A stretch of 64,000 bases of DNA from a virus. This document shows positions 4,050-35,675 of this stretch, one piece after another. Location: the IMG/VR virus record IMGVR_UViG_3300009502_001526, positions 1-64,000 of that record; one strand, written 5' to 3'. The notes under the pieces are model-generated. The model was given only the letters and a program-made list of their open reading frames with translations. It did no database searches and was not told where the DNA came from. Position 1 is the first letter of the stretch. Each line of letters starts with the position of its first letter. The position numbers and the translations under genes are program-made.

Positions 4050-5309
4050 TTAATTTTCAGATAAAAAAATTTCTTTAATCTTATCTACATAGTCTAATTT
4101 TTCCCAAGTGAAAAATTCAACATTTTTAAATATTTTATCAGCCACTTTATATGTATCTTTATCTTCATAAAATACTTGAACTCTATTGTAATAACTATCT
4201 CTACCAAAATGTCCATATGATGCTGTTGGACAATAGATAGGATTTTTTAATCCTAGCCTTTCTACGATAGAGTATGGTTTCATATCAAATAGTTCATTTA
4301 ATTTTTCTGCAATAACTTCATCAGAATATTTTCCTGTACCATAAGTGTTTACATAAAAACCAACTGGCTCTGCGACACCAATTGCGTATGCAACTTGTAT
4401 TAAAATCTCATCTGCTATACCAGCTGCTACTAAATTTTTAGCAATATGTCTAGCAGCATATGCTGCTGATCTATCAACTTTTGATGAATCTTTACCTGAA
4501 AATGCACCACCACCGTGCGCACCTTTTCCACCATATGTATCAACAATAATTTTCCTGCCAGTTAAGCCAGTATCACCGTGAGGTCCACCAATTACAAATT
4601 TGCCAGTTGGATTAACTAGTAGTTTTAATTCTTGATTAAACAAAGGTAATAATTTGCTAGGTAATAAATTTATTACTCTTGGAATCAAAATAGTTTTAAT
4701 ATCTTCTGTTATTTCTGGAACATCTGTATCTTCATCATGTTGTGTAGAAATAACTATTGTGTCTATTCTTATTGGTTTATTATCTTCATATTCAATTGTA
4801 ACCTGAGATTTACTATCAGGTCTTAAGTATGTCATATATCTACCTTCTCTTCTAATTTTAGATAGCTCTTTTAATAGTAAATGTGACAATTCAATTGTTA
4901 ATGGCATATAATTTTCAGTTTCATTCGTAGCATAACCGAACATCATTCCTTGGTCACCAGCGCCTTGTAATTCTGGATTTTCTCTATCAACTCCTTGATA
5001 TATATCATTTGATTGACCGTGAATTGTAGTTATTATACCACAAGATTCACTATCAAATTTATATTCAGATTTTGTATAACCTATTTCAGAGATAGTATCT
5101 CTTACAACTTTTTGAATATCAATATAATCATTTGTTCTAACTTCACCAGCGCAAACAACTAATCCTGTTGTTACTAATGTTTCACATGCAACCTTGGAAT
5201 TAGGATCATGTTTTAAAAAATCATCTAATAATGCATCAGATATTTGATCTGAAACTTTGTCTGGGTGTCCTTCAGATACACTCTCTGATGTAAATAAGTA
5301 TTTGCTCAT
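4050..5309 (-). CDS. metK: S-adenosylmethionine synthetase
   Basis: This 419-residue protein has the full MetK set: [19 protein letters not shown] at the N-terminus, [15 protein letters not shown] around residue 117, and the phosphate-binding [13 protein letters not shown] plus [19 protein letters not shown] in the second half. It makes SAM from methionine and ATP. It is somewhat longer than the usual 380-400 residues. In a phage it could raise SAM for the two DNA methyltransferases and the radical SAM enzyme here, or offset SAM depletion. It is followed by PTH2 after 15 nt. Confidence 0.97.
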
Positions 5310-5329
5310 AATTTAATTTATTTGTTTTT

Positions 5330-6325
5330 TTAATCATTTAAGTCGAATTCCATCATTATTTTAACTAACTCTTTGAATTTAACTTTTGATTCCCAACCTA
5401 AAACAGTTTTTGCTTTTGTTGGATCTCCTAATAATAAATCTACTTCTGATGGTCTGAAGTATTTTGGATCTATTTTAACTACAGTTTTACCTGTTTTTTT
5501 ATCTACACCTATTTCATCTTTCCCTGAACCTCTCCATTCAATTTGAACATCAATATATTTACAAGCTTCTTCAATAAATTCTCTATTTGTGTGCCCTTCA
5601 CCAGTTGCAATAACAAAATCATCTGGCTCTGGATGTTCTATAATTTTGATCATAGCATCGCAATATTCTGGTGCATAACCCCAATCTCTTGAACTGTCAA
5701 TATTTCCAAGATGAATTGGTTCTCCAGTCTTTGACCATTTTACTAATCCTTGTGTTATCTTTTTTGTTACAAAGTTTCCGCCTCTTCTCTCTGACTCATG
5801 ATTAAACAGTATACCATTGGAAATGAACATATTATAAGATTCTCTATAATTTTTAGAGATCCAATATGAATATAATTTTGCAACTCCATAAGGTGATCTA
5901 GGATAAAATGGTGTTGTTTCCTTTTGCGGAGTTTCTTGAACTTTACCAAATAATTCAGATGTTGTAGCATTGTAAATTCTACATTCTGGACAGTGTTTTT
6001 TTACTGCTTCTAATATTATTAGTGTACCTAATCCGTCAGTGTGGGCAGTGTATAAAGGTAGAAAGAAAGAGATTTGGACGTGACTTTGAGCAGCTAGATT
6101 GTAAATTCTATCTGGTTTAACTCTACTAATTATATCATCTATATTTAACGGATCAGTTAAATCTCCATAATGTAGATGTAATTTATCAAATATATGATCT
6201 ATTCTACTGGTATTAAATGAACTAGACCTTCTTATAATTCCGTGAACTTCATGTCCTTGTTCTAATAGTTTTTCTGCTAAGTAACTCCCGTCTTGACCAG
6301 TGATCCCCGTACATAATATTTTCAT
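5330..6325 (-). CDS. gmd: GDP-mannose 4,6-dehydratase
   Basis: The 331-residue extended SDR begins with the NAD(P) motif TGITGQDGSYLAEKLL and has the GMD signatures HGIIRRSSSFNTSRIDH, YNLAAQSHVQISF, the catalytic TSELFG and SPYGVAKLYSYW (YxxxK), and NHESERRGGNFVTKKIT. It converts GDP-mannose to GDP-4-keto-6-deoxymannose, the branch point to GDP-fucose, GDP-perosamine and GDP-colitose. The fucose synthase-like gene and an aminotransferase-fold enzyme follow upstream in the same operon. A slightly shorter form than the usual 340-370 residues. Confidence 0.97.
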   Translation of the reverse strand: MKILCTGITGQDGSYLAEKLLEQGHEVHGIIRRSSSFNTSRIDHIFDKLHLHYGDLTDPLNIDDIISRVKPDRIYNLAAQSHVQISFFLPLYTAHTDGLGTLIILEAVKKHCPECRIYNATTSELFGKVQETPQKETTPFYPRSPYGVAKLYSYWISKNYRESYNMFISNGILFNHESERRGGNFVTKKITQGLVKWSKTGEPIHLGNIDSSRDWGYAPEYCDAMIKIIEHPEPDDFVIATGEGHTNREFIEEACKYIDVQIEWRGSGKDEIGVDKKTGKTVVKIDPKYFRPSEVDLLLGDPTKAKTVLGWESKVKFKELVKIMMEFDLND

Positions 6326-6341
6326 TTATTAATAATTATTT

Positions 6342-7271
6342 TTATTCTAACGTAGTTAGATAATTTTTATAAGTTTCTTTTATACCTTCTTCTAATTCAA
6401 TAGTATGATTCCATCCTAATGAATGTAGTTTAGAAACATCTAAAAGTTTCTTTGGTGTTCCATCTGGTTTAGATGAATCAAAATATATTTCTCCTTCAAA
6501 TTCTATAATCTTTTTCATTAATAGTGCTAAATCTTTTATTGTTAAATCTTTACCACTACCTATATTGATTATTTCATTTTGGTTATAATTTTCCATTAAA
6601 AACAAACAAGCATCCGCTAAATCATAAACATGTAAGAATTCTCTATAAGGTGATCCAGTACCCCAAAGAGTGATAGATTTATCACCTCTTACTTTTGCTT
6701 CGTGAATTTTCCTTATCATTGCTGGAAACACGTGTGAATTTTCAAGATGATATGAATCGTTAGGTCCATAAAGATTTGTTGGCATTACAGAAATATAATT
6801 TGTATTATATTGTTTATTATATGATTGACACATTTTAATACCAGCAATTTTTGCTATTGCGTATGCATCATTTGTTTGCTCTAAATATCCTGACAATAAA
6901 TATTCTTCCTTAATTGGCTGTGGACATTCTCTAGGATAGATACAACTTGATCCTAATAAAAGCAATTTTTTAACATCAAAATTGAAACAAGAGTTTATCA
7001 CATTTGTTTCAATCATTAGATTTTGATAAATATATTCAGCAGGATATAGATTATTAGCCATAATTCCACCAACTTTTGCTGCGGCTAAAAATACATAATC
7101 TGGTTTTTCGTTCTTAAAATAATTATAAGTTCTAGATTGATTTGTAAGATCAAGCTCTTGATGACTAGCAGTAATTATATTAGTATAACCTTCATTTTTT
7201 AATTTTCTAACTATTGCACTACCGACCATTCCATTATGTCCAGCTACAAAAATTTTACTATTTAATTCCAT
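6342..7271 (-). CDS. fcl: GDP-L-fucose synthase-like epimerase/reductase
   Basis: This 309-residue SDR matches the WcaG/Fcl family: GHNGMVGSAIVRKL, AAAKVGGIMANN, LLLGSSCIYPRECPQPI, catalytic YAIAKIAG (YxxxK), and MPTNLYGPNDSYHLENSHV. The family epimerises and reduces GDP-4-keto-6-deoxymannose (the GMD product) to GDP-L-fucose. It lies 16 nt upstream of gmd. Because the operon also has a His-type DegT enzyme, its substrate could instead be the 3-deoxy intermediate, giving GDP-colitose. Confidence 0.93.
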   Translation of the reverse strand: MELNSKIFVAGHNGMVGSAIVRKLKNEGYTNIITASHQELDLTNQSRTYNYFKNEKPDYVFLAAAKVGGIMANNLYPAEYIYQNLMIETNVINSCFNFDVKKLLLLGSSCIYPRECPQPIKEEYLLSGYLEQTNDAYAIAKIAGIKMCQSYNKQYNTNYISVMPTNLYGPNDSYHLENSHVFPAMIRKIHEAKVRGDKSITLWGTGSPYREFLHVYDLADACLFLMENYNQNEIINIGSGKDLTIKDLALLMKKIIEFEGEIYFDSSKPDGTPKKLLDVSKLHSLGWNHTIELEEGIKETYKNYLTTLE

Positions 7272-7286
7272 TCATATTAATTATTT

Positions 7287-7631
7287 TTATTCGTGACCTT
7301 TATAAAGTTTTACAGAATCTTCAATTAAAGATTTTCCTTCTATAATTGATTTTTCCATCATTCTGTTAATCGCCTCAACATATTTTGGTCTTTTTTGTTT
7401 AAAACAAATGTCAATTTTCCTTTTCAAATCAGCAATTTCTGCATCTGAAGTTGATAATCCAATTGCATCTTCTAAATACCACATTCTACAATGTAGTATT
7501 GATAATTTTTCTATTACTTCACCAATATTATCAGTTTCAATAATATCAGATGGCATATCCACATTTGTTGATTTATTTAATGTATTATTAATTGTTGTTT
7601 TAATGATATCTTCTATTCTTTCACCTATCAT
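7287..7631 (-). CDS. Possible DUF4254-like protein in sugar cluster
   Basis: The 114-residue helical protein carries LHCRMWYLEDAIG, then DLKRKIDICFKQKRPKYVEAINRMM. This pattern (aromatic-ED motif followed by KRxID and a polar helix) resembles DUF4254, a family found in Bacteroidota polysaccharide clusters, but the protein is shorter than usual. It shares 4 nt with the DegT gene. The family assignment is from memory of the motif only. Confidence 0.75.
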   Translation of the reverse strand: MIGERIEDIIKTTINNTLNKSTNVDMPSDIIETDNIGEVIEKLSILHCRMWYLEDAIGLSTSDAEIADLKRKIDICFKQKRPKYVEAINRMMEKSIIEGKSLIEDSVKLYKGHE

Positions 7632-8785
7632 ATTACATTTTTATTTATTATATCACAGATATACTCTACTTCTTCTAGTCCTATATCTGGATTATTTGGC
7701 ACATACAATCCATATTTATCTACTATATCAGCAAAGTTAAAAGATTGTTTACCGTATAATTTTACCCAATAAGGCTGATTTCCAATAGACCCACAAATTA
7801 ATGGTCTACAGTCAACACCTCCTTTATTTAATTCTTCTGCAATTTTTTTCCTATTTGGATGAATTATAGGATAGGCAAAATTTGAAATATATGTATTTGG
7901 AAAATCAGTAATTTTCCAATAATCATTTTTAATTAATTCATTGTAATAAAAATAATTAAATTGCCTGGTGTGAACTACCCTATCAATTTTATCCATTTGA
8001 TGTATTCCAATGAATGCTTGTAAGTCTGTTGATCTTAAATTGAACCCAGGATAATAAAATTTATATAAATCTTCGAATTCATCAACTTCAAATCCCTTTT
8101 TTAATTCAGATTTAAATGGTTCATCTAAATCTCTATCCCAGCCATGCGCTCTTATTGATTTTAATATGCTATATAATTCGTAATCATCTGTTGTGATCAT
8201 ACCACCTTCTATTGTTGATAAATGATGACCGAAATAAAATGAAAATGAACTCATTAAACCAAATGAACCAGTTTTTATACCATTATATGTTGAACCAATA
8301 CTTTCACAAGAATCTTCTAATAAAATAATGTCATTTTCTAAGCATAAGTCAATTATTTCTTTCATTTTATTTGGAAATCCAAGTACATGAACTAACATTA
8401 CAACAGATGGACTATGTTCTTTTATTAATCTTTTTAGATCATCAATATCTAACCCAAGTGTTTCTTTATCACAATCACATAATATAGGATTTAATCCTAC
8501 TTGAATAATTGGAGCAACAGTTGTTGTCCATGAGACTGCAGGCAGTATAATATTTTTGTTTTTTAATTTACCAGAAATTAATAAACTATAAATCATAGCA
8601 AGGTTAGCTGATGATCCAGAATTGACGTATACCGAATATTTTCTATTTTGATATTTAGAAAATTTCTCTTCAAATTCTATAGTAAGTTTATTTTTGGTGA
8701 GTATTGGGTTTGTTTTTAACCATTCTATTAATAAACTAATATCATTAGTATCAATAGTATCCTTAACTAGTGTAATTCTATCCAT
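7628..8785 (-). CDS. DegT/DnrJ/EryC1 fold enzyme with His at the PLP lysine site (3-dehydratase-like)
   Basis: The 385-residue protein has the fold-type I sugar aminotransferase layout: YVNSGSSANLAMIYSLL, LPAVSWTTTVAPI, LLEDSCESIGS. Where aminotransferases have a PLP-binding lysine, it has FYFGHHLSTIEGG, with His at residue 188. The same Lys-to-His change defines ColD (GDP-4-keto-6-deoxymannose 3-dehydratase) and E1, which remove the C3 hydroxyl. With GMD in the operon, GDP-4-keto-3,6-dideoxymannose is the likely product. Aminotransferase activity is unlikely without the lysine. Confidence 0.93.
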   Translation of the reverse strand: MDRITLVKDTIDTNDISLLIEWLKTNPILTKNKLTIEFEEKFSKYQNRKYSVYVNSGSSANLAMIYSLLISGKLKNKNIILPAVSWTTTVAPIIQVGLNPILCDCDKETLGLDIDDLKRLIKEHSPSVVMLVHVLGFPNKMKEIIDLCLENDIILLEDSCESIGSTYNGIKTGSFGLMSSFSFYFGHHLSTIEGGMITTDDYELYSILKSIRAHGWDRDLDEPFKSELKKGFEVDEFEDLYKFYYPGFNLRSTDLQAFIGIHQMDKIDRVVHTRQFNYFYYNELIKNDYWKITDFPNTYISNFAYPIIHPNRKKIAEELNKGGVDCRPLICGSIGNQPYWVKLYGKQSFNFADIVDKYGLYVPNNPDIGLEEVEYICDIINKNVI

Positions 8786-9551
8786 TTATTACTTTTATTT
8801 TTTCTATTTCAGAAATAGTATCATTATATAGATCATTATATAACACTTGTTTAGATTTTAAATAAAAAATTCTTTCATCTGATGTTATATTTTCTTTATA
8901 ACTCTCTGTAACAAAGTCATCATAATTCATATTAAAATGAGAATATAAACTTCTAATAAAATCATTAACAAATATTAATCTTCCAGATCCAATTATATCA
9001 TCTGATTGAGCTTTTATAGATTGATCTACAACAAATTTTGGATGTATTAATTCTCTGTAAAAATATGTGTTTCCAATAGTTATCTTCTTTTCATTAATAA
9101 TTGAATCAAAAATTTTAGAAAATAAAAAACCTTCTTTTCTGTAAATAGAATTGAAATTAAATGGATAAAGAACTATAACTTTTTCATATTTATCTTTTAT
9201 TTTTTCAATCATTATTTTTTTAGAATCTATATAATTTGTTGATTTATAATTATATGGTGTAGTTATATCTATAGTTCCATTACAATTGTTCCATAATTCA
9301 CTCGTGCCATATATTATAATTTTATTAGAATACTTACTAAAATGATCTATTATTTTGAGTGTGTAATCAATATTTGTATTTAAAAAAATATCTCTATTAT
9401 CTTGAATATAAGTTCTTTGCTCAGCAAAGCAAATATAAACTCTATCATAAAGTTCTTCTGTGAAAAATATATCTCTGGATGATATTTTTTCATAATCATC
9501 TGGAAAATAATAAGATAATTGTGATGTGTTGCCTATTACTAAATTTTTCAT
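8778..9551 (-). CDS. Divergent NAD(P)-dependent epimerase/reductase-like protein
   Basis: The 257 residues look like a degenerate extended SDR: an N-terminal beta strand MKNLVIGNTSQLSYYF in place of the full TGxxGxxG, a central IIYGTSELWNN resembling the catalytic Ser region, and a later SKKIMIEKIK that could hold the YxxxK-type Lys. It overlaps the 3-dehydratase gene by 8 nt. A role in reducing or epimerising the deoxysugar, like ColC, fits the context but is inference. Confidence 0.8.
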   Translation of the reverse strand: MKNLVIGNTSQLSYYFPDDYEKISSRDIFFTEELYDRVYICFAEQRTYIQDNRDIFLNTNIDYTLKIIDHFSKYSNKIIIYGTSELWNNCNGTIDITTPYNYKSTNYIDSKKIMIEKIKDKYEKVIVLYPFNFNSIYRKEGFLFSKIFDSIINEKKITIGNTYFYRELIHPKFVVDQSIKAQSDDIIGSGRLIFVNDFIRSLYSHFNMNYDDFVTESYKENITSDERIFYLKSKQVLYNDLYNDTISEIEKIKVING

Positions 9552-9564
9552 TTTTTATTTGTTT

Positions 9565-10725
9565 TTATAATATCACTTCATATAATATTTCATGAAAGTG
9601 TATAAATTGTAATTTTACTTTACTTCCGTTTAGAACTATCCTACTTATAATGAAAAAATAGCCCGTATTTTTTGTAATTCTTTCATATGATAGTCCATAT
9701 GATCTATCGAAATTGCCATCATTATTTAAATCTATAAAAGATTGAATTGAAATATTATATAAATCTTCTGTGCAATTAAATTGTATTTTATTATTTTCTT
9801 TGGATATATTTAATTTTGTAACATTTCTTTTATTTGAAAATAATTTGTATTTTTTTATAACTTCTTCATTAATAACATTAAAGATATTATCACTATTGTC
9901 ATTAGTGATTAATATTCTATCAGATTTACTAAACTCTGAATAAAAAGCCATAATATAACTAGTTGTTATAGCTATAAATGTTTTATATGGATCATTAAAA
10001 TTACTTTTTGTTAATGTGTAACAATATGGTCCAGATGCTCTACCAACAATTATATTGCAATAGGTAGATAAGTAAGATATTTCATTTAAATCTGGCAATT
10101 GACATTTTATAATATCATCTGTAAACAATATGTTTTCTTTTATTGTGTCTATTTTTTTAGTTAGTATAAAATCAATATTTGGATGTAAATCAGATAAATT
10201 TATAATTATTTCATCAAGTGAAATATCTGACTGAGCTGATAAAACTTTGCCATTGCAGATTAAAACTTTGAATTTGTCATTTTGCTGAATATAGTTATCT
10301 ATATTTGAAATTTCATATTTTGAATAATCTATTTCTGGTATGTATAGGTTTTTTTCACTTAATTGAATATTAAGCTTATTATAAATGAAAGAATAGTATT
10401 TATAGTATGCTTCAAGTAATGACTTATATAATAGCCATTCATTGTCTTTTAATGCAAAATAGTACAAAGGATTTGTTCTTACAAAATGAATATTTATATA
10501 AACATCTTGATTTATTTTATAGTATGTTTGATCTATGAAACAATTTTCATTTAACTCCCCAAAATTAATTTTAGGTATATCTAATAATAATTTTGATGAT
10601 GATTTTTTTTCTAATAAATAATAGTTATCAAAATCAGTTTTATTTATTATATCTTTTATAAATTCCCTATAATAATGCAAATCACCATTATGACAATTAA
10701 AATTAGTAAAATATAATGTTTTCAT
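9565..10725 (-). CDS. Probable GT-B-like glycosyltransferase, tentative
   Basis: The 386-residue protein has no confident family. A middle region has the rhythm of a GT-B C-terminal domain (VLICNGKVLSAQS, then LSDLHPNIDFILTKK, then LNEISYLSTYCNIIVGRASG), similar to GT9-type enzymes. Near the C-terminus DLNNDGNFDRSYG looks like a DxNxDGxxD calcium-binding loop. It overlaps the 895-residue fusion gene by 4 nt. Probably acts in surface-sugar assembly. Confidence 0.8.
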   Translation of the reverse strand: MKTLYFTNFNCHNGDLHYYREFIKDIINKTDFDNYYLLEKKSSSKLLLDIPKINFGELNENCFIDQTYYKINQDVYINIHFVRTNPLYYFALKDNEWLLYKSLLEAYYKYYSFIYNKLNIQLSEKNLYIPEIDYSKYEISNIDNYIQQNDKFKVLICNGKVLSAQSDISLDEIIINLSDLHPNIDFILTKKIDTIKENILFTDDIIKCQLPDLNEISYLSTYCNIIVGRASGPYCYTLTKSNFNDPYKTFIAITTSYIMAFYSEFSKSDRILITNDNSDNIFNVINEEVIKKYKLFSNKRNVTKLNISKENNKIQFNCTEDLYNISIQSFIDLNNDGNFDRSYGLSYERITKNTGYFFIISRIVLNGSKVKLQFIHFHEILYEVIL

Positions 10726-13409
10726 TTTATATTTAATGATTTTAATATAGAATTACAAACTTGTTCTGGTGTTGGGTGACACTCATATGTAGGTTTATTT
10801 AGGTAACAAATACCAGATTTTAGAATTTGTGTAGTGCATGATTGATCTATACAAATTTTTGGATTAGCCAAACATTCCACTTTACATTCACCCCTTACAT
10901 AATCTAAATTATAATTTTCAACACCTTTTCTTATTCTATAAAAATATGTGTTCCAAGATGTTGATAGTTCTGTTATATGATTATCTAAATTACAAAGAGA
11001 TAGAATATATAATCCATTGTTCATGGTTACAAATGTTTTGCTTTTACTTATTATATGATAAGCTTGTGATATAGTATTCTGACAAGGATTATTTAATAGA
11101 TTTAAACCATTTTTTATTTGAATATTAGAAAATTTTTTATTTAGATTCACATCTAAAAATGTTTCTTTTCCAATTGCAACTACTGGAATATGTTCTTGTA
11201 TTAAATCTATAAAATCCTGCCAATTTTTATAACCCCAGGTTCTTTCAGGTTCTGTTTCAGATGGATTTATGCATATAAAGTTTTCAGGTAAATTTTCTAT
11301 TTTTTCAAATTCATCTGGGTAAAACTCCATATCAAGTTCATTTGATTTTAACTGAAAACCACAATTATATGCACAAATTTGTTTGTGATCAATTAATCTC
11401 CAATTTGTACCAATAAGATTAAATAAATGGTGTATATCAAAATTTTGAATATTAAATGAATTTAGCAATTGATCTAAATTGTTATTTATTGGTATAATTT
11501 GATCTATGTAAGGGTTATTAATAAATGCTGATGGTATATATGTTAGTATTGTAACTTTTTGATTATATATTTCTGACATTTTTTTTATTGTTGGTGTTGC
11601 TGATAAATTATCTCCAATGCCAACTTGAGAATGTAAAACCAAAACTTGTTTTTTTATTTTTTGATTGTGTATATTTTTGAAATTAAAATGTTGTTCTTTC
11701 AATATAACATTATCATATGTTATTTCAACTTTTAATCCTTTTATATTATTTAAATTTGTTGTAGAATACCATAATTCGTTATTATTAAAGAATGATAATG
11801 TGCTATATAATAATGTATTGCTATCATAGTATGAATTCCATTCATATAAATTAACTTTAACTTTCAATTTTGAGTTACAATAGATATATGTTCTATTTTC
11901 ATCTAAATTGCATCTTATATTAAAGTTTTTATTATTAAAATAAAAATTCTTAATAAAATCTGATGTTTCTTTGGATGTTTTATTTTTTACTCCATGAAAT
12001 ATGTATTTGTTCGGTTTTTCTAAATCTGATGGTATTTTTGTAAATGTTGAATATATTTTTTCTTCATTATAATAAGAGTAATAAAATTCTTTTACTTCAT
12101 CTATATTATTTATATTTACTTGAACAAATGGTAGTCTATTATTATATTTATACTTCCACAAAAGAATATTTATAGTGGTTTCATCCGCAAATGGGTAATA
12201 ATGTCTAATTTCGTCTAAACTTAAATTAAATGTTGATTCATTTATTTTATCATATTCTTCAATAAATTCTAGACAATTTGAATTATATAAAACAATAGAT
12301 GCATTCGCATAACAAATTCTATTTTCAATAGGAATTCCTAATTGTTGACATATTGGATATTCTAATATTTTAGTTGGTTCAAAATAACCATTTTCATAAG
12401 GATTACCTCTTATACCTTTAATAGTACTATCAGGATTAAAATCAGTAAAAAATATATATTCTGCTGGTCCTTTTTGAATTAATGGATAATTTGTAATATC
12501 TTTAAATTTTTCAAATAATAAGTCCAATTTGCTGTTTGGTAAAATGTCTGCATCTAAGTATAAAACTTTTTTTAATTTTAATTCTTTTATTGAATGTAAA
12601 ATAACTTTACTTTTTAAGAATATAGCTCTAAACATATTATGATTATTCATATTATTTCTATCACCTTCAAATTGAATATCACCTATTCTTTTATCTTCTA
12701 AATTTATGATATTTACATTATTTATATGAGGATTTTTGTTGAAATTTATTTCATATAAATGAATATTAAGGTTATCATGAAATAAATTTAATGTATTAAT
12801 TAAGTTTACTGAAGTTTCATAATAATTTTCTGTACAATATATTACAGTGTCCAATTTATTAGGTTTAATTATAAACCAAGATTTCCATTGATCTTCTCCT
12901 GTAACGTGTAATTCTAGATTATTTTGTTTAACAAATTCATCTATTGATTGCTTTACACCAAATTCACCTTGAGGTAGGCTACCATTTAAATAATCATGTC
13001 CAGAAAATATGCCACCAGGTTTAACTTTACTATACCATAAGCTAACATCTTTTTTAGACGCTGAATAAGAGTGATCTGCATCTAAGTATAAAAAATCAAA
13101 GTAATCATCTTCAAAATTATTAACTATATTTTCAGATAATCCTTTAATTATTTCAACTCGTTCTTTATGATTTGATATTTTGTTTTTAACTCCTTGTAAT
13201 ATAAAATCAAATTCTGGATTGCTATGATTTGAAATATCGTTGTAATTATCTAAATGTTGCCAAGAATCAATTAAATATAATTTTGATAAATTTGTTTTTT
13301 CTAATATTTTAATGCTATAATCTCCTTTATAAACACCAATATCACAACCAATTTTAAGATTTAATTCATTTATTAGTTTAAGAAATTCTTCCCTATCTTT
13401 GTATATCAT
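10722..13409 (-). CDS. Three-domain methyltransferase / GT-A / GT9-like fusion
   Basis: The 895-residue protein joins three parts. Residues 1 to about 190 form a class I SAM methyltransferase (GCDIGVYKGDYSIKILE, FLYLDADHSYSASKKDV, KPGGIFSGHDYL; Methyltransf_24-like). About 195-480 is a GT-A glycosyltransferase like GT8, with the DxD motif in KVLYLDADILPNS. From about 587 to the end is a GT9/heptosyltransferase-like GT-B domain (VLVLHSQVGIGDNLSATPT, ICINPSETEPERTWGY, FVTMNNGLY), with a Cys-rich tail of unknown role. It probably builds and methylates a surface glycan. Confidence 0.93.
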   Translation of the reverse strand: MIYKDREEFLKLINELNLKIGCDIGVYKGDYSIKILEKTNLSKLYLIDSWQHLDNYNDISNHSNPEFDFILQGVKNKISNHKERVEIIKGLSENIVNNFEDDYFDFLYLDADHSYSASKKDVSLWYSKVKPGGIFSGHDYLNGSLPQGEFGVKQSIDEFVKQNNLELHVTGEDQWKSWFIIKPNKLDTVIYCTENYYETSVNLINTLNLFHDNLNIHLYEINFNKNPHINNVNIINLEDKRIGDIQFEGDRNNMNNHNMFRAIFLKSKVILHSIKELKLKKVLYLDADILPNSKLDLLFEKFKDITNYPLIQKGPAEYIFFTDFNPDSTIKGIRGNPYENGYFEPTKILEYPICQQLGIPIENRICYANASIVLYNSNCLEFIEEYDKINESTFNLSLDEIRHYYPFADETTINILLWKYKYNNRLPFVQVNINNIDEVKEFYYSYYNEEKIYSTFTKIPSDLEKPNKYIFHGVKNKTSKETSDFIKNFYFNNKNFNIRCNLDENRTYIYCNSKLKVKVNLYEWNSYYDSNTLLYSTLSFFNNNELWYSTTNLNNIKGLKVEITYDNVILKEQHFNFKNIHNQKIKKQVLVLHSQVGIGDNLSATPTIKKMSEIYNQKVTILTYIPSAFINNPYIDQIIPINNNLDQLLNSFNIQNFDIHHLFNLIGTNWRLIDHKQICAYNCGFQLKSNELDMEFYPDEFEKIENLPENFICINPSETEPERTWGYKNWQDFIDLIQEHIPVVAIGKETFLDVNLNKKFSNIQIKNGLNLLNNPCQNTISQAYHIISKSKTFVTMNNGLYILSLCNLDNHITELSTSWNTYFYRIRKGVENYNLDYVRGECKVECLANPKICIDQSCTTQILKSGICYLNKPTYECHPTPEQVCNSILKSLNIK

Positions 13410-14170
13410 TTATTTATATTCATTTTAGTATCATTATAAAATTCTTCAACTCTTTCACTACCAATATAGTTGCAATTTTTATTAATACAACCTTTTGCTG
13501 TTGTACCAATTCCCATAAATGGATCATATATTAGTGATTTTTCAGGAAAATAGATATGAATTAATTTTTCAACTAATTCACTTGAGTAGGTTGCTTTTAA
13601 TTTTGTTTTGAATCCATCATTATTTTTAGCTTCTATTAAATTTGTGTAGTTTTTATAAAACTTTTGATTTGTTTTTTCATTGATTGTACTAACTTCTTTA
13701 TTTGCCTTGAAAGTATTTAGATATTTCTTATTTACAATTATATAAATCAATTCTGATATTCTTGTTAGTTTATTTGGACTTGTTTGAAATGGACTTGCTG
13801 AGTTCTTTTTCCATATTATAATATCAGTAAGAGTTAAATCAGTTTCAGTATGAATCTTATTTAAAAGTAAAGTTGGTAGTATTGGATTGTCTCCAGAATA
13901 TGACATGTTATAACATATAACACCATCTGGTTTAAGTATTCTTTGAAATTCTTTGAATTCTTTTAATCTTAATTCTAAATATTGCTCAGTTGTAAGATTA
14001 TCTACATCATTTTCATATAAATGAAAATCATCTTGATCTTTTCTACGATGATTAGGATTTCTTCCCATATTGTAGGGTGGTGAAGTTATAATTCCAGATA
14101 TAAAATGATCTGGCATTTTACTCATAGTTGTTAAATTGTCTTCATTATAAATTGTGTTTATTCCTCTCAT
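13406..14170 (-). CDS. DNA methyltransferase, beta-type order (SPPY ... FxGxG)
   Basis: The 254-residue protein has the catalytic motif ITSPPYNMGRN near the N-terminus and the SAM-binding motif YDPFMGIGTTAKG near the C-terminus, the order of beta-class amino-methyltransferases. SPPY is common in N4-cytosine enzymes and also occurs in N6-adenine ones, so the base is uncertain. The target-recognition part between them is small. It overlaps the fusion gene by 4 nt and heads the sugar operon as seen here, and could be a DNA-protection gene. Confidence 0.92.
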   Translation of the reverse strand: MRGINTIYNEDNLTTMSKMPDHFISGIITSPPYNMGRNPNHRRKDQDDFHLYENDVDNLTTEQYLELRLKEFKEFQRILKPDGVICYNMSYSGDNPILPTLLLNKIHTETDLTLTDIIIWKKNSASPFQTSPNKLTRISELIYIIVNKKYLNTFKANKEVSTINEKTNQKFYKNYTNLIEAKNNDGFKTKLKATYSSELVEKLIHIYFPEKSLIYDPFMGIGTTAKGCINKNCNYIGSERVEEFYNDTKMNINK

Positions 14171-14275: not shown

Positions 14276-17200
14276 TTAATTAAAAAGGTATTTGATACCA
14301 AACATCATTTGCCATCTTGAACTAAGACCAGTTGAGTTCTGGTAAGGTTGTACAAATGGTGTTGTTCCTGTTTGAAATGGATAAGAGAATGATGGAGTTT
14401 TTCCGTCTGCAGCTAATCCTTCATATTTTAAGAAGTTTGTAACTGTAGGAATTTTAACTGCTCCCCAATCTCTGTTTATTAGGTTTCCAGCATTTATAAC
14501 ATCCAATGAGAATTTAACAGTGTGTGCATCTTTACCAAATTTTAGATTTACATCTTGTGTAAGATTCAAGTCTAATTTGCTAAAGTATGGCGCAACAGTT
14601 GCATTTCTTCCAGCATATTCACCCCTATGTGTATTCAAGTAGGTTGAATTAGAGATAAATGCATCTACTTGTGACCATATTTGTGCCGCTGTTCTTGTGT
14701 CTGTTGATGTTAGAGTACCTAAACCACCAGACCCAACTTTTACCAAGTTAATATCAGATGCTGTTTTTGGAATGTAAATCAAGTCATTACCTGAATTACC
14801 ATCACCATTTAAGTCACCATTGTAAACATAAGAGTTTACACCGTTATTAGCCAATTCGTAAATTGCACCAATTGTTGTTGCAAGGTGTTTGCCTTCGTTA
14901 ATTTTATAAGCGAAGTTTGCAATAATTCTATTTGGTTGATAATAAGATGCATATCCTAAGTTAGCTGAGTTTGGATCTTGATTTGAAACTGATGCCGCAC
15001 TCCACAATGAAGATGCTGTAGACCCACCTTCTGCTGTATTTTTAGATACTGAGTGTGTATATGCTATACCATATGCAAGATTTGCAGTATTCCTTTGAAC
15101 TTTGAAAGTTAAAGTGTAAACATAACCTTGATTTGTGTTACTCATTAAAATTGCATTACCAAGGTTAGGATTAGCTAATGTTGATCCATAATAGTATTTG
15201 TTCGTATTTGCAACAGATGTTAAGAAACGAGTTCTATTGTCTACCCCTGCTAAATTAAATCCATTAGTTTCGTTCAAGTTTACATTGGAATAATAAACTG
15301 CGTTAATATCCTTTGTGTATGTATATTCAGCACCTAGAATCCAACCTCCAGTTAATCTTTTATCAACTGCTAAAGATGATTTCCATGCTGTTGGGTATTT
15401 GAAGTTGTTAGATACTAATGCTGTACTATAAGATGTATTTGCTGCACCAGCAGTTGGTCTATACGCATTTGGGTCAACATTGAATGCTACTTTACTATTT
15501 GTAAATGATCCAAATTGAATACCATTATTTGACGCTTGATTAGAAATCCAAACAAACGGTGGAGGTCCTGCAAAAATACCTGTTCCACCTCTAACTTGTA
15601 ATGATTTGTCACCTCTAGGATTCCAGTTGAAACCTAATCTTGGTGATACAATAACATTATTCATAGGAGCATCACCAATATTGTATGTTACGCCATCTTT
15701 GAATTTTAATGCATCAAAGTAAGGATTATCGGTCATTGCTTGTTTGTAGATAGTTTCGTCAATTCTCAATCCATAAGTTAATGTGAAGTTATTTGAAACT
15801 TTCCATTTATCTTGTACAAATTGTGATAATTCAGTTGATCCAGCATATGCCCAAGGGAATTCGCCACCAGGTAATGCAGAATATTGCAAGTAATATGATT
15901 TAGCATTTGCTGTTCCATATTTTGCTGAATTATAGAAATCAGTTAAACTATTAAATTGATAAACACCTTGATAACCAGGTGCAAATGCATTCTGATATTT
16001 CTTAAGTGAATTTTGAGTACCAATAGTTAGTTCGTGTGCACCTTTATAATAAGTTAAAATATCGTTTAATTGATAAACTGTTGTATTTAATTTATTATTA
16101 TAAGTGTACATTTCATAACCAAAAGATGTATAAATATTACCATTGTTTAGAATATCAACTAATGGTAATGTTTCACTACTTGAGTGTGGAGAACGGAAGT
16201 CTTTTAATTCTGTATAACCAACTTGTAATTTATTTGACAACTTATTACTAAAACGAGTATTTAATTCTGCAATTAAAATATTAAAGTTGTTGTTGATAAC
16301 ATAGCCACTACCAAAGAAAGGCATAGAATATGTACCTGGTTGACCACCAGTTACTTGACCACTACCTGGTCTAGATGTTGATGCATATTGATCCGCAGAA
16401 GATTTAAGGTAATTGTATTTTAATGTAAAAGTATTTTTAGCATTAATATTCCAATCTAATTTTGCTGTAATCTTATCAGAATAAGTTTTGAAAGTGTAAC
16501 CTTGAAATTCGCCTGGATCATATCCATATTTACTTTTCAAGAAATTAGATAAAACGGTTAGAGTGTCTGAATTTGCTTGTGAATAATTTCCACCAGCAGC
16601 ATGAGAAGCATCTGATGTTAACATTGAAGTTGCTGGAGCATCTTGTCTTACTTGCTCAGCACTTACAAAGAAGAATAATTTATTTTCAATAATTGGACCA
16701 CCTATACTAAATCCTTTGATTTTATAATCAAAAGGTGTTTTAACAACTGTTGTTGGTCCGACATTATAGCCTAAATAATTTTCGTTTCTTGAGTATTGGT
16801 AAATACTACCTTTGAATTTGTTTGTACCACTTTTAGTTACAGTATTAATACCAGCGCCAGCGAATCCACCTTGTTTAACATCATATGGTGACACGTTAAC
16901 TTGTATTTCTTCAATAGCGTCTAATGAAATTGGTTGTGCTGATGTTTGACCTCCTAATATAGAAGATAAACCAAATGAATTATTAAAATTCGCACCGTCA
17001 ACTGTCATATTATTATACTGGTTGCTTCTACCTCCGACATTCAAACCATTTGATGTTGGTTCTAATTTCACAAAATCTTGAATTGATCTATTAATTGTTG
17101 GTAAACGATCAACTTGACTTCTAGTAATTAACTCCTGCGAGCCCATTCTTGAACTATTGAAGTTCTTATCATTTGTAGACTTTACAACAACTTCACCTAA

Positions 17201-17542
17201 TAGAGTAGCGGCATCTGTTAGTAAAAAATCTTCTTTGTATACCTGACCCAAATTCAAGAATATATCACCTCTTGTTTCTGGTTTGTATCCTACAAACGAA
17301 GTTGTCAAAGTATATGGTCCGCCAATTTTAACGTTTGGCAAATTGTAACGACCATCTGACCGTGTCGTTGTCATATACTTAGTACCTGTTGGAACGTGGA
17401 CTGCCGTTACGATAACATTTGGTAACGGAGATTTACCTTCTAAAATTGTTCCTGAAATTTCAGAAGTAGTTTCTTGTGATCTTGCTACGATTGAGAACAA
17501 TAATAACATAATCACGAACATCACTCTTTTTAATTTTTCCAT
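14276..17542 (-). CDS. TonB-dependent outer-membrane receptor (Oar/SusC-like)
   Basis: This 1088-residue protein has a signal peptide (MEKLKRVMFVIMLLLFSIVA, cleavage near ARS-Q), a CarboxypepD_reg-like domain (about 26-110: SGTILEGKSPLPNVIVTA, GGPYTLTTSFVGY), a plug (about 120-250) and a long beta-barrel ending in FGIKYLFN. This is the Oar-like TonB-dependent receptor layout. Such proteins are normally host-encoded and import large substrates, and many serve as phage receptors. It is transcribed alone between terminators at 14227 and 17590. In a phage it might block superinfection or feed the infected cell; both are inference. Confidence 0.93.
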   Translation of the reverse strand: MEKLKRVMFVIMLLLFSIVARSQETTSEISGTILEGKSPLPNVIVTAVHVPTGTKYMTTTRSDGRYNLPNVKIGGPYTLTTSFVGYKPETRGDIFLNLGQVYKEDFLLTDAATLLGEVVVKSTNDKNFNSSRMGSQELITRSQVDRLPTINRSIQDFVKLEPTSNGLNVGGRSNQYNNMTVDGANFNNSFGLSSILGGQTSAQPISLDAIEEIQVNVSPYDVKQGGFAGAGINTVTKSGTNKFKGSIYQYSRNENYLGYNVGPTTVVKTPFDYKIKGFSIGGPIIENKLFFFVSAEQVRQDAPATSMLTSDASHAAGGNYSQANSDTLTVLSNFLKSKYGYDPGEFQGYTFKTYSDKITAKLDWNINAKNTFTLKYNYLKSSADQYASTSRPGSGQVTGGQPGTYSMPFFGSGYVINNNFNILIAELNTRFSNKLSNKLQVGYTELKDFRSPHSSSETLPLVDILNNGNIYTSFGYEMYTYNNKLNTTVYQLNDILTYYKGAHELTIGTQNSLKKYQNAFAPGYQGVYQFNSLTDFYNSAKYGTANAKSYYLQYSALPGGEFPWAYAGSTELSQFVQDKWKVSNNFTLTYGLRIDETIYKQAMTDNPYFDALKFKDGVTYNIGDAPMNNVIVSPRLGFNWNPRGDKSLQVRGGTGIFAGPPPFVWISNQASNNGIQFGSFTNSKVAFNVDPNAYRPTAGAANTSYSTALVSNNFKYPTAWKSSLAVDKRLTGGWILGAEYTYTKDINAVYYSNVNLNETNGFNLAGVDNRTRFLTSVANTNKYYYGSTLANPNLGNAILMSNTNQGYVYTLTFKVQRNTANLAYGIAYTHSVSKNTAEGGSTASSLWSAASVSNQDPNSANLGYASYYQPNRIIANFAYKINEGKHLATTIGAIYELANNGVNSYVYNGDLNGDGNSGNDLIYIPKTASDINLVKVGSGGLGTLTSTDTRTAAQIWSQVDAFISNSTYLNTHRGEYAGRNATVAPYFSKLDLNLTQDVNLKFGKDAHTVKFSLDVINAGNLINRDWGAVKIPTVTNFLKYEGLAADGKTPSFSYPFQTGTTPFVQPYQNSTGLSSRWQMMFGIKYLFN

Positions 17543-17589: not shown

Positions 17590-17629
17590 ATAAAAAAAAT
17601 AGGTATAGTTATTTGACAACTACACCTAC
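17590..17629 (-). terminator. Rho-independent terminator upstream of the TonB receptor
   Basis: On the minus strand GGTGTAGTT, a 7-nt loop and AACTATACC pair with one mismatch and are followed by TATTTTTTTTA. It ends the transcript of the 17721-21529 operon. The rest of 17543-17720 is AT-rich leader without a clear TAnnTTTG promoter; TATATAAATC near 17583-17592 is the best TATA-like element for the receptor gene. Confidence 0.65.
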
Positions 17630-17720
17630 TCTTGACGAACTTTTATACTTTGATTATATTTTTTCATAGATTATTTTACTAATTTATTTTATAAAAGTTT
17701 ATAAATATTATTATTTTTAT

Positions 17721-17978
17721 TCATTTTTTAACATCTTCGTCATAATTTTGTAACAATTTCAATTTTTCAACTCTTTCTCTTTTAAATAAAAAAGGGCAAA
17801 ATTCAGGTGTTACTTTATCTTTACCTATACTTCCAGATATTAATTGTACGCCATTCATTCCTTTAATTACATTATTATGAAAACAAGTATATGGTGAACC
17901 ATTTATAAAAAGTGTTGCTTTTTTTAAGTGTTCACACTCTTTACAACTAAAAATCCTTAATAGTATAGGACCTTCCAT
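17721..17978 (-). CDS. Small Cys-containing protein with C-terminal RERVEKLKLL tag
   Basis: The 85-residue protein has a CKECEHLKK motif near residue 12 and further Cys at about 32 and 61, perhaps a metal site. It ends FKRERVEKLKLLQNYDEDVKK, a copy of the shared basic C-terminal tag. It is the last gene before a terminator, so the tag cannot be explained as a start region for a following gene. Function unknown. Confidence 0.75.
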   Translation of the reverse strand: MEGPILLRIFSCKECEHLKKATLFINGSPYTCFHNNVIKGMNGVQLISGSIGKDKVTPEFCPFLFKRERVEKLKLLQNYDEDVKK

Positions 17979-17983
17979 TCATT

Positions 17984-20314
17984 TTAAATATTTTTTAATA
18001 TAGCAAGTGCTTTATTAGCTGCATTATCCCAAGAGAATTCATTTATTAGTAATTCAGAATCTTCTAATGCCTTTTTCTTATATTTCCAATAATTTGTGTA
18101 AACATCTCTCATTACTTTTGATAAATCACCAAAATCAGGTTCGTAATAATTTCCTACTCCATTTGGAATTGGTTTTTCATTTACTATTTTAACTGGATGA
18201 CCTTTTCCTTCTGCGAATTCTAACTGACCACTACAATTAGAATAAATTGATGGCGTACCACAAGCCATTGCTTCGCAATTGTGTACAGTTGCATTTGATA
18301 ATAAGTAAGAATTATCATTTTCTACTTCTAAATTGTAAACATAATCATTATAATTTTCTGATATAGAATTCTTAACTAATATTGCTAATCCTTCTGGATG
18401 CCACCAAGATTTATTACTATGCCTATTATTTTCATTATTTATACTCCATGATAGAGTATAACATGGACGTTTACCAATTTTTTTTCTTTTATTGAGTTGT
18501 AAAGAAGTTTTTTTGTTTAATCGCTGATTTGCGAACATCAATTGCCTAGTTAGTAAGTATGATACTGTTGTATAATTGAATCTTTCATTGGAATAACAAC
18601 CATCACCTAAAACCATATTTTTAATTAATTCATCTAAAATATTTAATGGTCCTAAAAGAATTTTTTCTGGTATTATTTTATTGTAAGACATTTTATTACA
18701 AAAAAATGTAAAAAATTTACATAGTAAAGTGGAATTAAAAGTTACAATTAACCTATTTCCTTTAATATCATAATTACCAATAGCACCAAATATTTTATTT
18801 ATTTCAAATATAATTTTTTCAGCAATTGGCATTTCTTTCTGATAATTTAATGAAAATATTAATTTTGATATACCATCTGTGCCTTCAGAAATATACCATC
18901 CGAATAAAAAAGATAAATCATGTAAATTAACAAATCTATTATATTTAAGTTGCTCACTTTTATAATTAAATCCAGTTTTATACCAAACTTTATCATCATC
19001 AAATAATAATGTATTATCTAATGTTAATAAATCAATTATTTCATTATTAAAATATTTTTGAGGTAATGTTGTTCTCAGTATTATATCACCTTTTTTAATA
19101 TTTTTTGATTTTATCCATTCTGGCTTAATATTTTGAATATTATTAAATTTACCTTTTTTTGTTATAAAAGATTCTCTTTTAATACCATAAACTGGATGCT
19201 CAGGTGTTAATTTTAACATTTCAAAATCGTTATACAAATTTATATTTATTATGTCGCCATTATATTTATTTTTAAATTTTTTTAATACTTTCTGTTCTCT
19301 TCCAATGTGACTAATAACTATATCATTTTCTTTTATTGATTCTATTGGAATGAAATTATTATTACCAAATATTAATTTTCCAGAAGGAACACACAATGGT
19401 AAGTTCCATCCTTCTGATCTTGCACAAGATAAAAATACATGACCATTTTTAAGATAATTTACATAATCTTTTCTATCAACAAAATGCAAGACTTTCAATC
19501 TATTATCATTAAAATTATAATGATTTAATCTTTCTTCAGTTGTTTTCATTCCATCATTAGAATAATCTGAATTGTCAACTGCCAATATTAAATCAACTGG
19601 CTCTTCTTTTCTAAATGTTTTTATAAAAGTATCAATAATTTCTGTTGTTGCTTTTCTATATTCCCATCTTCCAAATAATATAAATTTGAATCTATTATCT
19701 TTATACATATCTAAATTGTAATTGAAGAAGTCTGGATTGAAAATAGATCCATCAACAGCTTCAGGTACAACAAAAACTTTATTTTCTGGATAACCTTGAT
19801 TTACAATACATTGTTTCTGCCATTTTGATGGACACCAGAATTGATCAAACTTTTTAAGTATTTCAAAAAATCCATCTTCATATTTTGTTGATTCCCAAAC
19901 ATTATATGCAATTTTTAAACCAGTATATTTTTCGAGACAATGATAATAATGATGATTGGTTTCACTTAAAATCAAATCTACTTTTGGTACATTTAAATAT
20001 TTTGTTTCGCTATTAACATCACTGTCACAAAGTCCACTTCCATATCTGTTTTGAGAACCTAGTCCACAATATAATGTCTGAATATTTATTAGTTTTCTCT
20101 GGTAATCAGTTATGTATGACTCATTTGCATGAGGATCATTATATCTACCATTTGAGTTCATTGGACCTAATCCATCCCAAGTTTTTCCTACAGTAAAATT
20201 TCTAATTCTTAATGGATTTTTATAACTTAATGCTGTGAAGAAATCTCTTGCATGAGCATTATATCCTGTCTGCCCAATAAAACTTGTGTGGGCTTGTATA
20301 AAAAAATCATTCAT
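17984..20314 (-). CDS. GT4-type glycosyltransferase interrupted by an intein
   Basis: The 776-residue precursor is a GT-B glycosyltransferase of the GT4/GT1 group: TGYNAHARDFF near the N-terminus, IAYNVWESTKY, PEAVDGSIFNP, FILFGRWEYRKA, and the nucleotide-sugar binding ARSEGWNLPL joined after splicing to CEAMACGTPSI. Residues 308-679 are an intein (see separate entry). The spliced enzyme would be 404 residues. It overlaps the 20307 gene by 8 nt and is followed by 17721. It likely adds sugars to a surface glycan, as suggested by the cluster at 5330-13409. Confidence 0.93.
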   Translation of the reverse strand: MNDFFIQAHTSFIGQTGYNAHARDFFTALSYKNPLRIRNFTVGKTWDGLGPMNSNGRYNDPHANESYITDYQRKLINIQTLYCGLGSQNRYGSGLCDSDVNSETKYLNVPKVDLILSETNHHYYHCLEKYTGLKIAYNVWESTKYEDGFFEILKKFDQFWCPSKWQKQCIVNQGYPENKVFVVPEAVDGSIFNPDFFNYNLDMYKDNRFKFILFGRWEYRKATTEIIDTFIKTFRKEEPVDLILAVDNSDYSNDGMKTTEERLNHYNFNDNRLKVLHFVDRKDYVNYLKNGHVFLSCARSEGWNLPLCVPSGKLIFGNNNFIPIESIKENDIVISHIGREQKVLKKFKNKYNGDIININLYNDFEMLKLTPEHPVYGIKRESFITKKGKFNNIQNIKPEWIKSKNIKKGDIILRTTLPQKYFNNEIIDLLTLDNTLLFDDDKVWYKTGFNYKSEQLKYNRFVNLHDLSFLFGWYISEGTDGISKLIFSLNYQKEMPIAEKIIFEINKIFGAIGNYDIKGNRLIVTFNSTLLCKFFTFFCNKMSYNKIIPEKILLGPLNILDELIKNMVLGDGCYSNERFNYTTVSYLLTRQLMFANQRLNKKTSLQLNKRKKIGKRPCYTLSWSINNENNRHSNKSWWHPEGLAILVKNSISENYNDYVYNLEVENDNSYLLSNATVHNCEAMACGTPSIYSNCSGQLEFAEGKGHPVKIVNEKPIPNGVGNYYEPDFGDLSKVMRDVYTNYWKYKKKALEDSELLINEFSWDNAANKALAILKNI
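18278..19393 (-). mobile_element. Intein with LAGLIDADG homing endonuclease
   Basis: Residues 308-679 of the glycosyltransferase (372 residues) start with Cys, carry block-A features (CVPSGKLIFGNN, IKENDIVISH) and block B-like LTPEHPVYG, and end with ...SNATVHN followed by Cys, the standard C1 ... HN-C+1 splice junctions. Two LAGLIDADG-type motifs (LSFLFGWYISEG and LIKNMVLGDG) lie between, so it encodes a homing endonuclease. The insertion is inside the conserved nucleotide-sugar binding loop, a typical intein site choice. Confidence 0.93.
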
Positions 20315-35306: not shown

Positions 35307-35675
35307 TTAAATTTTAAATGCCGTATAACCAATAGAACAAGTTTCTGGTTGCTCACAAAAATGTAAATAATTATTTACATAGTTTATAATATTCAGTAAT
35401 CCTACTGTATTAGCGGAGTGAACATAAATTTGTGGAAGATTAATACCTTTGTCCATAGATAAATTGACTAACCATTTAGCACAATCGTAACCAGTTTTTT
35501 CTTCTTCACCTACAAATATTCCAAGATCATGATCTAATGAAATTGCACCAATATTTTCTAAGCCAATTGATTCTACAGTTTCAATAAATTGATAGAACCC
35601 TCTAACAATTATCCACTTATCTTCATATGGTGTTCTCAAGTCGTCAAGGTAAATATTTTTTAAATTCTTTCCCAT
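35307..35675 (-). CDS. Cyclic-phosphate processing receiver-like (cREC) protein
   Basis: The 122-residue protein has NIYLDDLRTPYEDKW (LDDxRxP), ISLDHDLG near residue 47 and IYVHSANTVG, the conserved set of the cREC family, a receiver-like fold predicted to process cyclic phosphates on RNA ends. It lacks a phospho-transfer context. Its start overlaps the GIY-YIG gene by 16 nt. RNA-repair role is by family association. Confidence 0.88.
   Translation of the reverse strand: MGKNLKNIYLDDLRTPYEDKWIIVRGFYQFIETVESIGLENIGAISLDHDLGIFVGEEEKTGYDCAKWLVNLSMDKGINLPQIYVHSANTVGLLNIINYVNNYLHFCEQPETCSIGYTAFKI

What the first reader, a model, noticed from the sequence alone, without database searches (positions are those of the whole stretch)
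14276..17542. Full-length TonB-dependent receptor on a phage-like segment
A 1088-residue Oar-like receptor with signal peptide, CarboxypepD_reg domain, plug and barrel is flanked by terminators and phage-type genes. Phages usually exploit such receptors rather than encode them. It could replace the host receptor to exclude other phages, or increase nutrient uptake.
Basis: partly seen in the sequence, partly recalled or inferred. Interest (0 to 1): 0.72.

Follow-up and report, generated by a model that had tools for sequence, protein, structure and literature searches.

The report
Megaphage carrying its host's membrane receptor
A very large virus of freshwater-type Bacteroidales bacteria carries a complete working-looking copy of one of its hosts' own outer-membrane transport proteins, and related viruses have each taken a different host's version into the same place, which suggests the protein is useful during infection.

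Summary
ORF 14276-17542 lies on the minus strand (the finding gave none) and encodes an intact 1088-residue Oar-subclass TonB-dependent transporter (TBDT). It is not host contamination. A second metagenome contig (G015) is collinear over about 50 kb with the receptor in the same slot. A third (G014) keeps the GT4-receptor-SAM-synthetase order. A 308-kb relative (G458) shows the slot empty. The window is a piece of a jumbo/megaphage: relatives are 168-735 kb, and one gene is 58% identical to Prevotella Lak phages.

The phage copies are nested among chromosomal receptors of Prolixibacteraceae/Marinilabiliales and are not one clade (AU p = 1e-5 for four copies, about 1e-71 for the three syntenic ones). 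So host alleles have repeatedly entered one slot. The copies are under purifying selection (dN/dS 0.04-0.15), have AT-shifted codons, and keep the TonB box and an unchanged loop/barrel divergence ratio. More distant Oar-like TBDTs occur in at least three other groups of viral contigs, including a T4-type 274-kb phage.

Best reading: a psbA-like host-derived gene that keeps a housekeeping outer-membrane transporter supplied during infection. Receptor swapping for superinfection exclusion remains open. A one-line precedent exists (Mar_Mega_1 SusC). Function is inferred, not shown.

The parts
14276..17542 (-). Oar-subclass TonB-dependent transporter, 1088 aa, host-derived
   Evidence: relatives
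17477..17542 (-). signal-peptide-like N-terminus (residues 1-22)
   Evidence: sequence by eye; no predictor available
17183..17458 (-). N-terminal extension, CarboxypepD_reg (residues about 29-120)
   Evidence: Pfam PF13620/PF13715
17180..17194 (-). TonB box, EVVVK (residues 117-121)
   Evidence: aligned motif (EVVV, EIVV, DVVV or EAVV) present in phage and host copies
16823..17122 (-). plug region (residues about 141-240), 0-6% phage-host differences
14279..16822 (-). beta-barrel with long extracellular loops (residues 241-1088)
   Evidence: PF25183; strands and loops from model; TBDT folds
17595..17633 (-). terminator-like hairpin upstream of the receptor, ending the preceding transcript
   Evidence: not above chance number
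17721..17978 (-). 85-aa small ORF, border of the slot; homologues in G015 (62%) and empty-site G458 (39%)
17984..20314 (-). GT4-type glycosyltransferase interrupted by an intein; conserved next to the receptor in G014 and G015
13406..14170 (-). N6/N4 DNA methylase immediately downstream; absent from the empty site
   Evidence: PF01555 2.4e-30
10722..13409 (-). large ORF with methyltransferase domain, downstream of the slot
   Evidence: PF13578
4050..9551 (-). SAM synthetase, GDP-mannose 4,6-dehydratase, epimerase, DegT aminotransferase, second epimerase: phage surface-sugar cluster next to the receptor
   Evidence: conserved in G015 and mostly in G458

Best explanation
The gene is a bona fide megaphage gene for a full-length Oar-subclass TonB-dependent transporter, taken from the chromosome of Prolixibacteraceae/Marinilabiliales hosts. 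It was inserted into one slot of a phage cluster for surface-sugar metabolism and has been repeatedly re-supplied or swapped from different hosts by recombination. Shown: gene intact, phage context, host ancestry, repeated exchange, purifying selection, shift towards phage codon composition. Inferred: during a long infection in which host gene expression declines, the phage makes this housekeeping outer-membrane transporter itself, so that TonB-driven uptake (or Oar-type protein export) and envelope function continue. This is the same logic as psbA in cyanophages.
For: (1) Same gene, same slot in independent contigs: G015 is collinear with about 50 kb of the window, and G014 keeps GT4-receptor-SAM synthetase. 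The 308-kb relative G458 has the 85-aa gene followed directly by the epimerase, with no receptor. (2) Nearest relatives are chromosomal genes of Bacteroidia MAGs (89-90% to three hosts), with flanks that do not share the phage's neighbourhood, e.g. nadA upstream and hisS near by. (3) Phage copies are interspersed with hosts; one clade is rejected (AU p 1.1e-5 for four, 2e-71 for the three syntenic, 2.6e-5 for L003+L004). (4) dN/dS 0.04-0.15; GC3 0.16-0.23 in phage copies against 0.28-0.59 in all but one host copy (L015, 0.18). (5) TonB box and C-terminus retained; loop/barrel divergence ratio for phage-host pairs (0.64-1.16) lies inside that of host-host pairs (0.65-1.95), give or take 0.01. 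(6) Composition-corrected codon bias of the receptor ranks first to third among ORFs of at least 200 aa in seven phages. (7) Other virus groups carry their own Oar-like TBDTs, one of them in a 274-kb phage with T4-type portal, capsid, terminase and sheath genes.
Against: No expression, proteomic or uptake data. The ligand or export substrate of this Oar subclass is unknown. The gene sits among glycosyltransferase and nucleotide-sugar genes, which fits surface remodelling as well. None of 12 contigs from related jumbo phages has it (several are fragments), so it is dispensable for most of the lineage. The codon-bias ranking is affected by gene length, and the receptor is not extreme in hosts by the same measure. 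Codon adaptation to ribosomal genes is high in two hosts but confounded by AT-ending codons.
Confidence: 0.5

Rival explanations
1. Receptor substitution for superinfection exclusion: the phage floods the outer membrane with an allele that competing phages (or its own progeny) cannot use, together with altered surface sugars from the adjoining cluster. Phage PA-2's porin Lc, which replaces OmpC, is a precedent (own knowledge).
For: Receptor lies in a surface-sugar cluster with GDP-mannose dehydratase, DegT aminotransferase, epimerases and glycosyltransferases. TBDTs are common phage receptors, and phage T5 disables FhuA with Llp (PMC9586334). The window copy differs from its nearest host allele at about 10% of residues, the distance between separate host species.
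Against: Loops, where phages bind, are not enriched for differences between phage and host copies. A new allele alone does not remove the host protein already present. Host alleles keep being recaptured, which favours a host-matched rather than an altered protein.
Confidence: 0.25
2. Receptor provisioning or decoy: the extra receptor ends up in outer-membrane vesicles or debris, either soaking up rival virions or sensitising neighbouring cells to the phage.
For: Host-like loops would be needed for both; gene kept intact under selection.
Against: No direct evidence; soaking up one's own virions would be costly if the phage uses the same receptor.
Confidence: 0.08
3. Passive cargo: host genes captured at random and short-lived in the phage, with no function there.
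For: Not present in 12 contigs of related jumbo phages; copies are of different host ancestry.
Against: Same slot in separate phages, dN/dS 0.04-0.15 at dS 0.5-1.5, codons shifted towards phage composition, all copies full length; separate receptors kept in other virus groups, one with a gene block shared by 22 contigs.
Confidence: 0.05
4. Assembly chimera or host contig misfiled as virus.
For: Higher GC (0.33) than its surroundings (0.22-0.28) and near-host protein sequence.
Against: Independent contigs with the same neighbours and phage flanks, an empty-site relative, third-position GC near phage level, and no host flank genes. High GC is shared by the phage's own vault-like gene.
Confidence: 0.02

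Closest known systems
Oar-subclass TonB-dependent transporters (Myxococcus xanthus Oar, which exports protease PopC; PMC6434023)
   Same: Same layout: signal peptide, PF13620 N-terminal extension, plug with TonB box, barrel of about 22 strands.
   Different: Encoded by a virus; substrate unknown; only the domain layout was compared with M. xanthus Oar, not its sequence.
psbA/psbD and other host-derived genes of cyanophages (PMC5083919)
   Same: Host housekeeping membrane protein, acquired several times, phage copies mixed with host copies in trees, homologous exchange with hosts.
   Different: Outer-membrane transporter rather than photosystem protein; Bacteroidales megaphage; expression not shown.
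Putative TonB-dependent receptor (SusC) of marine megaphage Mar_Mega_1 and LR745206 (PMC9723777)
   Same: A large phage encodes a TonB-dependent receptor; carbohydrate uptake was proposed.
   Different: Different TBDT type (SusC). No matching megaphage record was found by tblastn of this protein in the phage collection. That paper mentions it in passing, without host ancestry or exchange.
Phage T5 Llp / Cor superinfection-exclusion lipoproteins (PMC9586334)
   Same: Phage manipulation of an outer-membrane TBDT.
   Different: Llp blocks the host's receptor; here a whole receptor is encoded.
Huge phages LR756500/LR756501 (462 and 735 kb) and Prevotella Lak phages (about 540 kb)
   Same: Share the vault-like protein (49-53%, the LR records) or an RNA ligase (58%, Lak) with the window, so they are the wider lineage.
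   Different: No receptor of this family detected in them by tblastn.

Membership tests
TonB-dependent transporter, Oar subclass | Outer-membrane beta-barrel of about 22 strands | tested here: met
   PF25183 1.9e-54; about 20-22 strands in model, BtuB Z 20.0 and FhuA Z 19.6; model confidence low outside strands
TonB-dependent transporter, Oar subclass | N-terminal plug domain | tested here: inconclusive
   PF07715 20.9 bits against a cut-off of 23.9; relative L106 passes (25.5); region nearly invariant across close relatives; plug not folded in model
TonB-dependent transporter, Oar subclass | TonB box before the plug | tested here: met
   EVVVK at residues 117-121, aligned in phage and host copies
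TonB-dependent transporter, Oar subclass | CarboxypepD_reg N-terminal extension | tested here: met
   PF13620 1.6e-15; defining extension per PMC6434023
TonB-dependent transporter, Oar subclass | Sec signal peptide and outer-membrane location | not testable with these tools
   signal-like N-terminus by eye only
TonB-dependent transporter, Oar subclass | Energised transport or export through TonB | not testable with these tools
   needs experiment
Host-derived phage auxiliary gene (psbA type) | Gene lies in a genuine phage genome | tested here: met
   collinear contigs, relatives with a terminase (G468) and a Lak-phage homologue; capsid genes not on the window fragment itself
Host-derived phage auxiliary gene (psbA type) | Nested within host gene diversity | tested here: met
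Host-derived phage auxiliary gene (psbA type) | Kept functional by selection | tested here: met
   dN/dS 0.04-0.15
Host-derived phage auxiliary gene (psbA type) | Expressed during infection and raises phage yield | not testable with these tools
   no transcriptome or phage in hand
Superinfection-exclusion system | Infected or expressing cells resist further phages | not testable with these tools
   needs adsorption and plating assays
SusC/RagA-type receptor with SusD partner | Adjacent SusD-like lipoprotein | not tested
   no SusD model was searched for directly; the larger annotated neighbours (4-22 kb) gave no such hit

The most novel reading that the evidence does not exclude
Megaphages of Bacteroidales run a standing exchange of a host surface receptor. 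A fixed genomic slot is repeatedly loaded with the current host's allele, so the phage both keeps the infected cell's outer membrane working and acts as a vehicle that moves receptor alleles (which are themselves potential phage receptors) between bacterial species. Other lineages of large phages have converged on the same trick.
Probability: 0.25. Interest if true: 0.85.

Novelty: new variant of a known kind. Interest (0 to 1): 0.64.

Why it matters
TBDTs are doorways that many phages use to enter cells, so a phage that carries one is counter-intuitive. Here it can be shown that the carrying is real, recurrent and of host ancestry, in a megaphage lineage related to Lak and other huge phages, and that other large-phage groups have Oar-like TBDTs of their own. 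If the supply reading holds, it extends the psbA principle from photosynthesis to the outer membrane of heterotrophs. If the exclusion reading holds, it is a whole-receptor form of superinfection exclusion. Either is directly testable by expressing the phage allele in a Bacteroidales laboratory strain. The host-like alleles also predict the host (Prolixibacteraceae/Marinilabiliales) of uncultured megaphages.

Tried and rejected
Chimera or contamination: rejected. Single ancient acquisition inherited within the phage lineage: rejected by AU tests. Loop diversification for receptor change: no signal. T4-late or sigma promoter evidence upstream of the receptor: nothing above chance. Host codon adaptation (CAI) looked striking but is confounded by AT-ending codons; the composition-corrected measure is not extreme in hosts, so it is not used as proof. 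Solved-structure sequence search with the alignment gave no hit, although fold alignment found TBDTs. MT837825 (the only phage-collection hit, 32%, a 6-kb unverified faecal contig) was not used. T4-type capsid, portal and terminase searches on the window fragment and its nearest contigs found nothing, as expected for partial contigs with divergent genes; G458 itself gave only a weak terminase hit. The mosaic origin of the L004 N-terminus (closest to the window phage over the first 80 columns, to hosts elsewhere) is noted as suggestive only. Viral contigs L132-L140 (25-27% identity) are on a long branch, and their place in the tree is uncertain. In the L106 group all contigs were found through the receptor, so 'all 22 have it' is by construction.

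Full report
Observation. The gene is present exactly at 14276-17542, on the minus strand, 1088 codons. Pfam finds PF25183 outer-membrane barrel (1.9e-54), PF13620 CarboxypepD_reg (1.6e-15), PF13715 and a sub-threshold Plug. The protein starts with a signal-peptide-like stretch and carries a TonB-box-like motif (EVVVK, residues 117-121) that aligns in phage and host relatives. An AlphaFold model from 19 window and locus sequences is poor in the plug but gives about 20-22 barrel strands. VIA-align places it with TonB-dependent transporters (BtuB Z 20.0 over 450 residues, FhuA Z 19.6). The domain layout is that of the Oar subclass (PMC6434023).

The record. The window is bases 1-64000 of a 73,981-base IMG/VR virus record. 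It has no recognisable capsid, portal or terminase gene, but it is one piece of a very large phage. A 43.6-kb contig from another metagenome is 99.98% identical to 30793-73981. Contigs sharing its vault-like protein run to 308 and 470 kb. The same protein occurs at 49-53% identity in huge-phage records of 462 and 735 kb, and an RNA ligase is 58% identical to Prevotella Lak megaphages. A 209-kb member has a clear terminase (3e-22); the 308-kb member G458 has phage-type helicase, polymerase and methyltransferase genes.

Not a chimera. Contig G015 (56 kb, another metagenome) is collinear with the window over most of its length and holds the receptor at the same place. G014 keeps glycosyltransferase, receptor and SAM synthetase in order. 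In G458 the neighbouring cluster is kept (GT4 64%, DegT 83%, epimerase 73%), but the 85-aa gene is followed directly by the epimerase: no receptor, no methylases. None of 12 contigs sharing the vault-like gene has a receptor homologue, though several are fragments. The receptor is therefore a gain in one subclade, or a loss elsewhere.

Where it came from. A scan of 84,980 prokaryote species genomes gave 39 loci. The nearest are Bacteroidia MAGs named as Marinilabiliales, Prolixibacteraceae or unresolved Bacteroidia (80-90%), then Chitinophagaceae (56-75%). The close host loci do not share the phage's neighbourhood (one unrelated-looking 32% match to a phosphoesterase apart), and several share host flanks such as nadA upstream and hisS near by. 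Most of the close hosts have one copy of this gene. In the tree the window copy groups with three hosts (100/100), the G014 copy with three others, the G015 copy with a wider set, and the L002 copy lies outside. Holding the phage copies together is rejected (four copies p = 1.1e-5; the three syntenic ones p = 2e-71; G014+G015 p = 2.6e-5). Since the slot is shared while the alleles are not, the simplest reading is repeated replacement or re-supply from hosts. Transfer in the other direction, phage to host, cannot be excluded for single branches, and the first 80 columns of the G015 copy resemble the window copy more than any host.

State of the gene. Synonymous distances to the nearest hosts are large (dS 0.55-1.5 where measurable), non-synonymous ones small (dN/dS 0.04-0.15). 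Third-position GC has moved towards phage composition (0.16-0.23 against 0.28-0.59 in hosts, with one host copy, L015, at 0.18). So the copies are not fresh and are under purifying selection. Composition-corrected codon bias of the receptor is first to third among ORFs of at least 200 aa in seven phages, which hints at strong expression, with the caveat that short genes score less reliably. Using barrel and loop boundaries from the model, phage-host pairs show loop/barrel divergence ratios of 0.64-1.16, within the host-host range of 0.65-1.95 to the rounding: no special change in the outward-facing loops.

Wider occurrence. An alignment-based scan found 40 viral loci with this family. Besides the window's group there are three further groups. 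One has about 50% identity, contigs up to 274 kb and a gene block shared by 22 contigs including PhoH and a helicase; G436 of that group has a T4-type portal (6e-71), capsid (8e-75), terminase and sheath. A second has 39% identity and genes that look by eye like GroEL and GroES plus a phage-type clamp loader next to the receptor. A third is a 25-27% set on two kinds of contig, some with terminase or tail-fibre genes. Representatives were re-checked with Pfam. A 73-row tree needs at least seven changes between phage and host (fast method).

Mechanism. The best reading is that a phage with a long cycle keeps producing a housekeeping outer-membrane transporter of its host, as cyanophages do with psbA (PMC5083919). 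This fits host ancestry, repeated recapture, conservation of loops and TonB box, and selection. Rival: replacement of the surface receptor for superinfection exclusion. The gene sits in a cluster with GDP-mannose dehydratase, two epimerases, a DegT aminotransferase and glycosyltransferases, so a joint surface-remodelling role is plausible, but loop divergence gives it no support. Which substrate is moved, or whether something is exported as by M. xanthus Oar, is unknown.

Known or new. One paper lists a putative SusC-type TonB-dependent receptor in marine megaphage Mar_Mega_1 and LR745206 and suggests carbohydrate uptake (PMC9723777). Searches of the paper library found no study of phage-encoded TBDTs; most subscription papers are not held. 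New here: the Oar subclass, the fixed slot with an empty-site relative, non-monophyletic host-derived alleles, and occurrence in several large-phage groups. I file it as a new variant of the known kind 'host-derived auxiliary gene'.

Noticed in passing
window 36993-39404 (-): 803-aa protein with a Major Vault Protein shoulder domain (PF11978 1.7e-26) and vault repeat; phmmer hits solved MVP structures (8.5e-11). It is the most codon-biased large gene of the window, 91% identical in G015, present in 308-470 kb contigs and in 462 and 735 kb huge phages: a phage-encoded vault-like protein that deserves its own study.
   Followed up: partly
window 17984-20314 (-): GT4 glycosyltransferase interrupted by a 372-residue intein (residues 308-679, starting CVPSGKLIF and ending VHN before Cys); the G014 and G015 homologues are intein-free.
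   Followed up: yes
window 4050-9551 (-): Cluster of SAM synthetase, GDP-mannose 4,6-dehydratase, epimerase, DegT aminotransferase and a second epimerase: looks like a phage pathway for a deoxy-amino sugar nucleotide.
   Followed up: partly
window 27258-28445 (+), 56161-57369 (+), 35660-36430 (-), 62006-62944 (+): Two ORFs matching a PHROG transposase family and two homing endonucleases (GIY-YIG type): many small mobile elements in one fragment.
   Followed up: no
record 68627-69874 (L005:8627-9874, +): RCC1-like ('regulator of chromosome condensation') repeat protein in the phage, outside the window.
   Followed up: no
L119 2854-13282: In another viral group the receptor sits beside ORFs that look by eye like GroEL, GroES and IMP dehydrogenase, plus a clamp loader confirmed by PHROGs: a chaperonin-transporter neighbourhood.
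   Followed up: no
host loci L010, L012, L014, L038: Host receptor genes have lower third-position GC than their neighbours, close to ribosomal genes in the two hosts compared (0.29 against 0.33, 0.32 against 0.37): high expression or earlier horizontal transfer from Chitinophagaceae-like donors.
   Followed up: partly
L015: A 'Chitinophagaceae' MAG contig carries the closest outgroup receptor to the Prolixibacteraceae/phage clade, so the family may have crossed between orders.
   Followed up: no
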